A stretch of 22,429 nt of DNA, taken from NCBI RefSeq assembly GCF_004570345.1, contig NZ_SPQM01000080.1:1-22429 (forward strand). The letters are read 5' to 3'. Position 1 is the stretch's first letter; every line of letters starts with the position of its first letter. This DNA comes from Blastococcus sp. CT_GayMR20 (lineage in GTDB: Bacteria > Actinomycetota > Actinomycetes > Mycobacteriales > Geodermatophilaceae). Of the stretch, positions 1 through 22,429 are shown one piece after another. Under the pieces are notes generated by a model, which made no database searches, had not been told where the DNA came from, and saw only the letters and a list, made by a program, of their open reading frames with translations. Made by a program: the position numbers and the translations under genes.

Positions 1-26
1 AGCCGGCAGATCACAGAGCCGCTCAT
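1..26 (-). CDS. trmD: Start of trmD, mirrored copy, cut by the window start
   Basis: Exact mirror of the stub at the other end. Both copies stop at the same base of the gene, which would be an unlikely coincidence for a real duplication. Confidence 0.38.
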
Positions 27-568
27 AGCTCCAGCAGGCCCTCGGGCGGGTCCACCACCACGAAACCGCCGGCGAGGTCCACGGTGGGCACGATCGCCGA
101 GACGAAGGGGATCAGCGCGTCCGGGGCGCCCGGCCGGCGGACGACCAGCAGGTCCTGCGCCTCGTGCCGGACGGCCGTCACCTCGCCGAGCGCAGACCCG
201 TCGGGCAGGCGGGCGGCGAGACCGACCAGCTGGTGGTCGTAGAACGAGTCGGGGTCCTCGATCTCGGGGAGATCGGCCACGTCGACCAGGAGTTCGGTGT
301 TGCGGACGGCCTCGGCCGCCTCGCGGCTGTCGATCGGCTGACCGTCCCCGCCCTCGAGACCCAGCAGCAGGGTCGTGCCGTGCCAGTGCACGCGGGTGAT
401 CGTGATGGGACCGCGGTCGGCGGGGTCGGTGCGCAGGACCGCCCCGGGCACGAAGCGCAGGTCCGGGTCGTCGGTGCGCACCTCGACGGTCACGTCACCG
501 CGGACACCGTGGGGCCGGCCGATGCGGCCGACCACCACGGTGTCGATGGGGTCGTGCGGGGCGCTCAA
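23..568 (-). CDS. rimM: Ribosome maturation factor RimM, mirrored copy
   Basis: Identical RimM with RimM and PRC-barrel domains; preferred TTG start at 568, alternatives at 538, 535 and 631. It ends at 23, overlapping the stub of trmD by 3 bases. Confidence 0.94.
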   Translation of the reverse strand: MSAPHDPIDTVVVGRIGRPHGVRGDVTVEVRTDDPDLRFVPGAVLRTDPADRGPITITRVHWHGTTLLLGLEGGDGQPIDSREAAEAVRNTELLVDVADLPEIEDPDSFYDHQLVGLAARLPDGSALGEVTAVRHEAQDLLVVRRPGAPDALIPFVSAIVPTVDLAGGFVVVDPPEGLLEL

Positions 569-578
569 GAGGTTGTGC

Positions 579-815
579 TCAGCGCCCGTCGGTGTCGACG
601 ACGTCGACCCGGAGGCCGCGACCGCCGACACCGGTCATGACCTGACGCAGCGCCTTGGCGGTGCGGCCGCCCCGGCCGATGACCTTGCCGAGGTCGTCGG
701 GGTGCACCCGGATCTCGAGGGTCTTGCCGCGACGGTTGGTGAGCAGGTCGACGGTCACCTCTTCGGGATGGTCGACGATGCCCTTGACCAGGTGCTCGAG
801 CGCCTCTTCGAGCAC
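579..815 (-). CDS. khpA: KH-domain RNA-binding protein KhpA, mirrored copy
   Basis: Same 78-residue KH protein with its GRGG loop, GTG start at 815, 3 bases downstream of the copied rpsP stop. Confidence 0.94.
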   Translation of the reverse strand: MLEEALEHLVKGIVDHPEEVTVDLLTNRRGKTLEIRVHPDDLGKVIGRGGRTAKALRQVMTGVGGRGLRVDVVDTDGR

Positions 816-818
816 CTC

Positions 819-1337
819 TTACTCGGCAGGCGTCTCGGCGGGAGCCGGGGTCTCCTCGGCGGGAGCCTCGGCAGCCGGGGCCTCCGCGGCGGGAGTCTCG
901 GCAGCAGCCTCGGGAGCCTCGGCGGGCGCCTCGGCGGCGGCGGCCTTCTTCGGCGCCGCCTTCTTCTTGGCGGTGGTCGCCTCGGTGGTCGGCTCGTCCA
1001 TGCCGGCGCGGACGGCGGCCTCGTAGAGGGCCTTCTTGTCCGGCTTGGGCTCGGCCACCCGCATGGGCGGCGGCGCGGCCTCGCCCTTGAACTTCTGCCA
1101 GTCACCGGTGACCCGGAAGATGGCGGCGACGGCCTCGGTCGGCTGCGCGCCGACACCCAGCCAGTACTGCGCACGGTCGGAGTCCACCTCGATGTACGAG
1201 GGGTCCTCCTTGGGGTGGTACTTGCCGATCGTCTCGATCGAGCGGCCGTCACGCTTGGTGCGGGCGTCTGCGACGACGATGCGGTAGTACGGCGCGCGCA
1301 TCTTGCCCAGGCGCATGAGCTTGATCTTGGTGGCCAC
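819..1337 (-). CDS. rpsP: 30S ribosomal protein S16, mirrored copy
   Basis: Identical 172-residue S16 with the Ala/Glu/Pro-rich tail, GTG start at 1337. It heads the copied rpsP - KH - rimM - trmD operon running toward base 1. Confidence 0.96.
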   Translation of the reverse strand: MATKIKLMRLGKMRAPYYRIVVADARTKRDGRSIETIGKYHPKEDPSYIEVDSDRAQYWLGVGAQPTEAVAAIFRVTGDWQKFKGEAAPPPMRVAEPKPDKKALYEAAVRAGMDEPTTEATTAKKKAAPKKAAAAEAPAEAPEAAAETPAAEAPAAEAPAEETPAPAETPAE

Positions 1338-1518
1338 GGTGGGTGGTGTACTCCTCGAACGCTGGATCGGTTGCTCGCCGGAGCGACGTGTGGGGGTACG
1401 CCGGGGCGGAGCCATGGACACGGGCCGCGACGGTGAGAGGGCCGCCGACAGTCGTGTTCGACCCGCCATTGTGCCAGACGCCGGAGAGCCGCCGTCCGGC
1501 CGTCCGATCGGCGGCCGC

Positions 1519-20962: not shown

Positions 20963-21092
20963 GGCGGGTCGAACACGACTGTCGGCGGCCCTCTCACCGT
21001 CGCGGCCCGTGTCCATGGCTCCGCCCCGGCGTACCCCCACACGTCGCTCCGGCGAGCAACCGATCCAGCGTTCGAGGAGTACACCACCCACC

Positions 21093-21611
21093 GTGGCCAC
21101 CAAGATCAAGCTCATGCGCCTGGGCAAGATGCGCGCGCCGTACTACCGCATCGTCGTCGCAGACGCCCGCACCAAGCGTGACGGCCGCTCGATCGAGACG
21201 ATCGGCAAGTACCACCCCAAGGAGGACCCCTCGTACATCGAGGTGGACTCCGACCGTGCGCAGTACTGGCTGGGTGTCGGCGCGCAGCCGACCGAGGCCG
21301 TCGCCGCCATCTTCCGGGTCACCGGTGACTGGCAGAAGTTCAAGGGCGAGGCCGCGCCGCCGCCCATGCGGGTGGCCGAGCCCAAGCCGGACAAGAAGGC
21401 CCTCTACGAGGCCGCCGTCCGCGCCGGCATGGACGAGCCGACCACCGAGGCGACCACCGCCAAGAAGAAGGCGGCGCCGAAGAAGGCCGCCGCCGCCGAG
21501 GCGCCCGCCGAGGCTCCCGAGGCTGCTGCCGAGACTCCCGCCGCGGAGGCCCCGGCTGCCGAGGCTCCCGCCGAGGAGACCCCGGCTCCCGCCGAGACGC
21601 CTGCCGAGTAA
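21093..21611 (+). CDS. rpsP: 30S ribosomal protein S16
   Basis: S16 is a primary 16S rRNA-binding protein needed for 30S assembly. The GTG at 21093 gives the canonical start MATKIKLMRLGKMRAPYYRI, followed by DGRSIETIGKYHP and SDRAQYWLGVGAQPTEAV. The conserved domain ends near residue 85. The remaining half is a Lys- then Ala/Glu/Pro-rich low-complexity tail (repeats of EAPA), which lengthens the protein to 172 residues; such tails are usual in actinobacterial S16. GAGGAG at 21074-21079 is the likely ribosome site, 13 bases upstream, somewhat far. An upstream in-frame ATG (20961) overlaps the promoter and is rejected. First gene of rpsP - KH - rimM - trmD. Confidence 0.97.
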   Translation: MATKIKLMRLGKMRAPYYRIVVADARTKRDGRSIETIGKYHPKEDPSYIEVDSDRAQYWLGVGAQPTEAVAAIFRVTGDWQKFKGEAAPPPMRVAEPKPDKKALYEAAVRAGMDEPTTEATTAKKKAAPKKAAAAEAPAEAPEAAAETPAAEAPAAEAPAEETPAPAETPAE

Positions 21612-21614
21612 GAG

Positions 21615-21851
21615 GTGCTCGAAGAGGCGCTCGAGCACCTGGTCAAGGGCATCGTCGACCATCCCGAAGAGGTGACCGTCGACCTGCTCACCAACCGTCG
21701 CGGCAAGACCCTCGAGATCCGGGTGCACCCCGACGACCTCGGCAAGGTCATCGGCCGGGGCGGCCGCACCGCCAAGGCGCTGCGTCAGGTCATGACCGGT
21801 GTCGGCGGTCGCGGCCTCCGGGTCGACGTCGTCGACACCGACGGGCGCTGA
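21615..21851 (+). CDS. khpA: KH-domain RNA-binding protein KhpA
   Basis: A 78-residue single KH domain, the protein found between rpsP and rimM in Gram-positive bacteria (KhpA, formerly YlqC), an RNA-binding partner of KhpB/Jag-type proteins affecting mRNA and cell-size control in firmicutes. The GxxG loop that contacts RNA is GRGG at residues 47-50 in KVIGRGGRTAKALR. The flanking RRGKTLEIRVHP and LRVDVVD strands fit the fold. The GTG start lies only 3 bases after the rpsP stop, with the Shine-Dalgarno-like GAGTAAGAG overlapping that stop, so it is translationally coupled to rpsP. It ends 10 bases before the rimM start. Confidence 0.95.
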   Translation: MLEEALEHLVKGIVDHPEEVTVDLLTNRRGKTLEIRVHPDDLGKVIGRGGRTAKALRQVMTGVGGRGLRVDVVDTDGR

Positions 21852-21861
21852 GCACAACCTC

Positions 21862-22407
21862 TTGAGCGCCCCGCACGACCCCATCGACACCGTGGTGGTC
21901 GGCCGCATCGGCCGGCCCCACGGTGTCCGCGGTGACGTGACCGTCGAGGTGCGCACCGACGACCCGGACCTGCGCTTCGTGCCCGGGGCGGTCCTGCGCA
22001 CCGACCCCGCCGACCGCGGTCCCATCACGATCACCCGCGTGCACTGGCACGGCACGACCCTGCTGCTGGGTCTCGAGGGCGGGGACGGTCAGCCGATCGA
22101 CAGCCGCGAGGCGGCCGAGGCCGTCCGCAACACCGAACTCCTGGTCGACGTGGCCGATCTCCCCGAGATCGAGGACCCCGACTCGTTCTACGACCACCAG
22201 CTGGTCGGTCTCGCCGCCCGCCTGCCCGACGGGTCTGCGCTCGGCGAGGTGACGGCCGTCCGGCACGAGGCGCAGGACCTGCTGGTCGTCCGCCGGCCGG
22301 GCGCCCCGGACGCGCTGATCCCCTTCGTCTCGGCGATCGTGCCCACCGTGGACCTCGCCGGCGGTTTCGTGGTGGTGGACCCGCCCGAGGGCCTGCTGGA
22401 GCTATGA
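21862..22407 (+). CDS. rimM: Ribosome maturation factor RimM
   Basis: RimM helps fold the 3' domain of 16S rRNA around S19 during 30S maturation. With the TTG at 21862 it has 181 residues: an N-terminal RimM domain with the signature VVGRIGRPHGVRGDV (about 11-25) and a C-terminal PRC-barrel domain (about 100-175, FYDHQLVGL, DLLVVRRPG, ALIPFV). The start is uncertain: GTG codons at 21892 and 21895 would begin right at the signature, and a GTG at 21799 would overlap the KH gene by 53 bases with unconserved-looking sequence. I prefer TTG because it clears the KH gene and keeps a short leader of residues. The stop overlaps the trmD start (ATGA). Confidence 0.95.
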   Translation: MSAPHDPIDTVVVGRIGRPHGVRGDVTVEVRTDDPDLRFVPGAVLRTDPADRGPITITRVHWHGTTLLLGLEGGDGQPIDSREAAEAVRNTELLVDVADLPEIEDPDSFYDHQLVGLAARLPDGSALGEVTAVRHEAQDLLVVRRPGAPDALIPFVSAIVPTVDLAGGFVVVDPPEGLLEL

Positions 22408-22429
22408 GCGGCTCTGTGATCTGCCGGCT
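22404..22429 (+). CDS. trmD: Start of trmD (tRNA m1G37 methyltransferase), cut by the window end
   Basis: The ATG of ATGA overlaps the rimM stop and opens a frame of eight codons (MSGSVICR) before the sequence ends. The identity rests on position: trmD follows rimM in nearly all actinobacteria. The residues seen are too few to confirm it. Confidence 0.4.

What the first reader, a model, noticed from the sequence alone, without database searches (positions are those of the whole stretch)
1..22429. The entire window is one 2 x 11,138-base palindrome around a 153-base loop
Seen directly: x pairs with 22430-x for all positions compared outside 11139-11291, and whole operons recur in mirror image with identical proteins. 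Known: perfect palindromes of even a few hundred bases are cut by SbcCD-type nucleases or block replication in bacteria, so an 11-kb one carrying duplicated ffh, proS and rpsP is unlikely to persist in a chromosome. Known: whole-genome amplification (MDA) and some library methods create fold-back chimeras of this shape. Artefact is the leading explanation. A real inverted dimer or an amplification intermediate is the exciting alternative.
Basis: partly seen in the sequence, partly recalled or inferred. Interest (0 to 1): 0.75.

Follow-up and report, generated by a model that had tools for sequence, protein, structure and literature searches.

The report
Artefactual fold-back contig of Blastococcus-like DNA
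This whole contig is one ordinary 11-kb stretch of a soil-actinobacterium chromosome written twice head to head, almost certainly by a library or assembly fold-back error, so it is ordinary rather than a real giant palindrome.

Summary
In detail: 1-11138 and 11292-22429 are exact reverse complements; all 81 unpaired positions lie in 11139-11291. The contig recorded for the window's own GlnD protein is 22,429 bases, so the window is the whole contig. Loop plus right arm is C-terminal glnD running into ffh, proS, rpsP and rimM, collinear with Geodermatophilaceae relatives. In 80 of 80 fetched relatives native glnD sequence directly precedes the loop; a self-megablast finds no inverted repeat of 100 bases or more in any of the 80. 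The joint sits at a short native inverted match: GCGCGAG before the loop (all 7 bases in 40 of 80 relatives, inner 6 in 47 of 80) and CTCGCGC after it, the signature of a 3' end snapping back. Only 47 of 22,375 55-mers are absent from a single-copy segment, so few chimeric reads could make the contig (inferred; no assembler was run). Whole-contig palindromes are reported as assembly artefacts (PMC9455707, PMC12755884). A real in vivo fold-back dimer is not excluded without reads; I give it about 3%.

The parts
1..11138 (.). left arm, exact reverse complement of 11292-22429
11139..11291 (+). 153-base loop: native glnD coding sequence, in frame with the right arm
11292..22429 (.). right arm; native orientation relative to the loop, collinear with relatives
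11132..11138 (+). GCGCGAG: both the inner end of the left arm and the glnD sequence that precedes the loop in 40 of 80 relatives (inner 6 bases in 47 of 80)
11292..11298 (+). CTCGCGC: partner of the 7-base match; inferred snap-back priming site
11116..11133 (.). 18-base perfect palindrome GCGGGACGCGCGTCCCGC (mirror copy)
11297..11314 (.). 18-base perfect palindrome GCGGGACGCGCGTCCCGC (copy in the native-side glnD)
11139..12716 (+). C-terminal part of GlnD (HD and ACT domains); N-terminal domain missing; the mirror copy at 9714-11138 (- strand) lacks the loop part as well
7784..9358 (-). ffh (SRP54); mirror copy in right arm
6708..7787 (-). amidohydrolase; mirror copy in right arm
5374..6627 (+). 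sensor histidine kinase; mirror copy in right arm
4637..5377 (+). response regulator; mirror copy in right arm
2133..3881 (-). proS, prolyl-tRNA synthetase; mirror copy in right arm
1519..2046 (-). LGFP-repeat protein; mirror copy in right arm
819..1469 (-). rpsP (S16 domain at residues 53-111 of the 216-aa ORF); mirror copy in right arm
579..815 (-). KH-domain protein (KhpA/KhpB type); mirror copy in right arm
23..631 (-). rimM; mirror copy in right arm; the contig ends 22 bases past its stop codon

Best explanation
The contig is an artefact. The real DNA is a single-copy chromosomal segment (N-terminal glnD, not in the contig; loop; C-terminal glnD; ffh; ... proS; rpsP; rimM) of a Blastococcus-like actinobacterium. 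During amplification, library making or end repair, a 3' end being extended towards the start of glnD, ending in CTCGCGC, annealed to GCGCGAG 153 bases back on its own or a sister strand and was extended, so that the sequence turned round and retraced itself (inferred). An assembler then entered the same unique segment twice, once in each direction, and wrote it out twice (inferred). Shown: exact symmetry, native state at the joint in all fetched relatives, a short inverted match flush with the joint, and that the joint adds only k-8 new k-mers at the five k tested. Not shown: the reads, the amplification method and the assembler.
For: 0 mismatches in 11,138 paired bases and both arms end at the same base. 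Whole contig = window. 80 of 80 relatives carry native glnD sequence directly upstream of the loop (30 native residues printed for 78 of 80). 0 of 80 have an inverted repeat of at least 100 bases in a self-megablast and 0 of 80 match the loop-plus-arm half on the minus strand over 100 bases or more. Among the 120 homologues listed (of 6592 found) only P0001, the window's own, has the mirrored N-terminus; 115 of 120 show the native junction motif. Joint at a 7-base (at least 6) inverted match: random fold-backs with the same loop length in the 80 loci reach 7 in 0.0365% and 6 in 0.097% of 400,000 draws. Only 23, 47, 69, 119 or 141 k-mers (k = 31, 55, 77, 127, 149) are absent from a single-copy half. 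MDA chimeras: 406 of 475 inverted, 337 of these 406 over less than 10 kb, 76.8% primed at 2 or more complementary bases, up to 21 (PMC1855051, passages). Palindromic contigs are judged assembly artefacts in single-cell (PMC12755884) and SPAdes isolate assemblies (PMC9455707).
Against: No reads, coverage or sample history were available, and no assembler was run. The native sequence of this very organism upstream of the loop was not found; the microhomology is inferred from relatives, of which 33 of 80 lack even the 6-base version. The strand across the joint folds no better than shuffles (z -0.24; 73 of 200 shuffles at least as good), so there is no special hairpin. PMC1855051 excludes hairpin self-priming as a major route in MDA. 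In vivo fold-back also uses short inverted matches (PMC5345009), so the joint sequence does not separate the two. PMC6218980 says that in Illumina paired-end data such chimeras should sit in only few reads, so a contig crossing the joint implies that the native branch was weak or missing, which I could not check.
Confidence: 0.95

Rival explanations
1. A real inverted duplication formed in a living cell: a broken or stalled strand folded back at the 7-base match and replication turned it into a head-to-head dimer that persists in a chromosome or an extrachromosomal element.
For: Large inverted repeats exist in bacteria: PMC5345009 (passages) reports them at the terminus of all 5 L. bulgaricus chromosomes analysed, two more with 8.7- and 9.4-kb arms away from the terminus (Streptococcus suis D9, Magnetospirillum magneticum AMB-1), and cites S. 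griseus and E. coli cases; it describes fold-back priming on inverted matches as short as 4 bases and argues that very large repeats persist once formed.
Against: Base rate: 5 of 1368 complete circular genomes had arms over 8 kb with a spacer under 10 kb (PMC5345009). No unique flank is seen, though a short-read assembly of a real palindrome could lose its flanks too. glnD would be truncated in both copies. No inverted repeat in 80 of 80 relatives' loci. The joint was not found in 112 family genomes: one 2-mismatch hit in an unrelated reading frame; that search would miss a joint diverged by more than 2 of 22 bases.
Confidence: 0.03
2. A plasmid, phage or linear replicon whose inverted-dimer form is a replication intermediate.
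For: Hairpin-ended linear replicons make inverted dimers (recalled).
Against: Gene content is chromosomal housekeeping. Megablast of one arm: no phage record; 7 plasmid records, none with 80% of the arm in one place, the best 15%. The arm is collinear with contigs of relatives, one of them 4.73 Mb long.
Confidence: 0.005
3. The contig comes from single long palindromic reads (a missed hairpin adapter or a long-read amplification chimera) rather than from a graph path used twice. Also an artefact.
For: Palindromes were found in 45.8% of Arabidopsis and 11.8% of gorilla-Y amplified long reads, against 0.5% in a non-amplified control (PMC6218980, passages).
Against: A missed adapter would leave no 153-base native loop (inference). 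Both arms end at the identical base and differ nowhere, which fits one graph segment used twice better than a randomly sheared molecule (inference).
Confidence: 0.015

Closest known systems
Whole-contig palindromes in assemblies (81 contigs in M. bovis, PMC9455707; a small number in single-cell cyanobacteria, PMC12755884)
   Same: The contig is one palindrome with identical genes mirrored
   Different: The passages I read give no joint sequences; here the joint and its short inverted match are resolved
MDA inverted chimeras (Lasken and Stockwell 2007, PMC1855051)
   Same: Inverted joint over a short interval (153 bases) with complementary priming within the 2-21 nt range reported
   Different: Whether this sample was amplified is unknown
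Large inverted repeats at the L. bulgaricus terminus (PMC5345009)
   Same: Head-to-head duplication of ordinary genes around a unique centre, explained by fold-back at short inverted matches
   Different: Those have 18.7-37.7 kb arms, 1-8.8 kb spacers and a terminus location, in complete or nearly complete isolate genomes
Palindromic circularised chromosome of Streptomyces griseus mutants (Uchida 2004; recalled, and as cited in PMC5345009; paper not held)
   Same: Actinobacterial head-to-head duplication
   Different: Arose in a linear chromosome after UV-induced telomere deletion (as PMC5345009 puts it)

Membership tests
fold-back (inverted chimera) artefact | exact inverted copy turning round at one point | tested here: met
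fold-back (inverted chimera) artefact | short complementary match flush with the joint | tested here: met
   inferred from relatives: 7 bases in 40 of 80, 6 or more in 47 of 80; chance 0.04-0.1%
fold-back (inverted chimera) artefact | native locus is single copy and collinear | tested here: met
   in relatives only: 80 of 80 native at the joint, 0 of 80 with an inverted repeat of 100 bases or more
fold-back (inverted chimera) artefact | joint carried by few reads, native joint also present | not testable with these tools
   no reads held
fold-back (inverted chimera) artefact | MDA or low-input library (for the MDA variant) | not testable with these tools
   record not identified; no genome held for the window
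natural large inverted repeat (L. bulgaricus type) | unique flanking DNA on both sides | tested here: inconclusive
   none seen, the palindrome fills the contig; a short-read assembly of a real palindrome could lose flanks too
natural large inverted repeat (L. bulgaricus type) | lies at the replication terminus | tested here: inconclusive
   one relative of another genus only, G001 (Klenkia, L065): glnD 1.38 Mb from dnaA on a 4.73-Mb contig, about 58% of the way to the opposite point; G002 has the two genes on different contigs
natural large inverted repeat (L. bulgaricus type) | shared by related strains | tested here: not met
   no inverted repeat of 100 bases or more in 80 of 80 relatives' loci; joint pattern search of 112 genomes gave one off-target hit, a weak test for diverged joints

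The most novel reading that the evidence does not exclude
A real, recent fold-back dimer in a wild Geodermatophilaceae cell or extrachromosomal DNA, made at a 7-base inverted match in glnD and tolerated with a loop of only 153 bases.
Probability: 0.03. Interest if true: 0.6.

Novelty: not a real feature. Interest (0 to 1): 0.06.

Why it matters
As an artefact it matters for data hygiene: it doubles ffh, proS, rpsP and rimM in gene counts and puts a chimeric GlnD protein (P0001, whose first 39 residues are read from the mirrored arm) into a protein collection. If real it would be a very tight, very long bacterial palindrome and would bear on how cells handle fold-back breaks.

Tried and rejected
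Mobile element or phage origin: not supported by megablast of one arm. Shared joint in relatives: the one 2-mismatch hit among 112 family genomes (L081) lies in an unrelated reading frame, so I take it as chance. Special hairpin at the loop: fold no better than shuffles. Outer ends caused by a dispersed repeat: the terminal bases resemble an insert between rimM and trmD seen in L030, L053 and L077, but it is not multicopy (one part matched in 3 of 16 genus genomes, one place each; another part in 9 of 16, at most two places each, with one hit of the reversed control pattern), so the idea was dropped; why the contig stops there stays unexplained. Joint in viral contigs: no exact match. A further paper search gave one paper already found and others that I did not open.

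Full report
Observation. The window was compared with its own reverse complement: 81 of 22,429 positions fail to pair and all lie in 11139-11291, so two arms of 11,138 bases match without a difference around a 153-base loop. The entry for the window's own GlnD product (P0001) gives one contig of 22,429 bases, so the window is the whole contig and no unique flank is seen.

Identity. Gene content of one arm: rimM, KH protein, rpsP, LGFP-repeat protein, proS, a low-complexity ORF without Pfam match, response regulator, histidine kinase, amidohydrolase, ffh, a 63-aa ORF and the C-terminal part of glnD. The scan for relatives kept 80 of 95 loci that encode a relative; the best segment of the GlnD piece is 75-92% identical and the leading ones are Blastococcus and Geodermatophilus. 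The loop plus right arm has plus-strand matches in the loci and no minus-strand match of 100 bases or more in any of the 80; in the 25 loci printed all pieces are on the plus strand, and in the four shown in detail the main pieces follow in the window's order. 59 of 80 loci reach the outer end of the arm and 58 of these go on for more than 100 bases; 58 of the 81 loci held by then show a TrmD-like start motif. So the arm looks like an ordinary single-copy chromosomal segment.

The joint. In 80 of 80 relatives the loop's first codon is preceded by native glnD sequence (motif L[LI]R.VSLAGRRL); one search prints 30 native residues upstream for 78 of 80, while L066 and L074 were mis-anchored there and rest. 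In the window the loop is preceded by the mirrored arm. The last seven bases before the loop, GCGCGAG, fit both: they mirror CTCGCGC at 11292-11298, and native glnD has them at that place in 40 of 80 relatives, the inner six in 47 of 80; 33 of 80 have neither. L012, L005, L051 (the closest by protein) and L001 have all seven. Random fold-backs with a 153-base loop in the 80 loci show a flush match of at least 7 in 0.0365% and at least 6 in 0.097% of 400,000 draws. The switch thus probably happened at a short inverted match, as expected if a 3' end snapped back and copied its own or a sister strand. The strand across the joint is not unusually stable (z -0.24).

Why artefact. First, compared with a plain single-copy segment (GCGCGAG plus loop plus right arm), the palindrome adds only 23 of 22,399 31-mers, 47 of 22,375 55-mers, 69 of 22,353 77-mers, 119 of 22,303 127-mers or 141 of 22,281 149-mers. 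A few chimeric fragments could therefore suffice, and the 11-kb arms, their identity and their equal end points follow if an assembler passes the same segment twice (inference; I ran no assembler). Second, contigs that are one palindrome from end to end are reported: 81 in SPAdes assemblies of M. bovis, judged likely assembly error (PMC9455707, passages), and a small number in single-cell assemblies, judged very likely assembly artefacts (PMC12755884, passages). Third, MDA chimeras have this form: 406 of 475 inverted, 337 of these over less than 10 kb, 76.8% primed at 2 or more complementary bases, up to 21; the authors exclude hairpin self-priming as a major route (PMC1855051, abstract and passages). 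Amplified long reads are rich in palindromes (45.8% and 11.8% in two sets, 0.5% in a control), though in Illumina paired-end data such chimeras should sit in few reads (PMC6218980, passages). Whether this sample was amplified is unknown, and the M. bovis passages do not mention amplification, so MDA need not be assumed.

Why a real palindrome is not excluded. Large inverted repeats occur in all 5 L. bulgaricus chromosomes analysed, fold-back at short inverted matches is proposed there too, and the authors expect such repeats to persist (PMC5345009, passages). Among 1368 complete circular genomes 5 had arms over 8 kb with a spacer under 10 kb: three L. bulgaricus at the terminus, and two others (8.7- and 9.4-kb arms, close to the size here) elsewhere. 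So a terminus location is not required; for the record, in G001 (Klenkia, another genus) glnD is 1.38 Mb from dnaA on a 4.73-Mb contig. Missing flanks do not decide either, as a short-read assembly of a real palindrome could lose them. A search of 112 family genomes for the joint with up to 2 mismatches gave one hit, in an unrelated reading frame; it would miss a more diverged joint. Of 120 listed homologues (6592 found), 115 carry the native junction motif and only P0001 has the mirrored N-terminus; of the other four, P0103 starts at the loop's first codon and P0073, P0076 and P0109 miss my motif and were not examined further.

Verdict. The length of the palindrome carries little weight of its own; nearly everything rests on the joint, which only reads can test.

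Noticed in passing
window 9111-12716 (+) and 9714-13319 (-): 1201-aa open frames run across the fold on both strands; the collection's gene call P0001 (564 aa) has 39 N-terminal residues read from the mirrored arm.
   Followed up: yes
window 9426-9617 (-): 63-aa ORF between ffh and glnD with CPPC and CADC motifs, possibly a small zinc-ribbon protein; no Pfam match.
   Followed up: partly
window 3939-4613 (-): 224-aa ORF with a hydrophobic start and a Ser/Gly/Asp-rich tail; no Pfam match.
   Followed up: no
window 22412-22429 and mirror 1-18; L030, L053, L077 between rimM and trmD: The contig ends at the start of a short intergenic insert that three relatives share and that reads by eye as a GC-rich hairpin (not folded); why the contig stops there is not explained.
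   Followed up: partly
plasmid record NZ_LR134461.1, 23513-28480: A 152-kb Tsukamurella record listed as plasmid carries ffh and rpsP; it may be a mislabelled chromosome piece.
   Followed up: no
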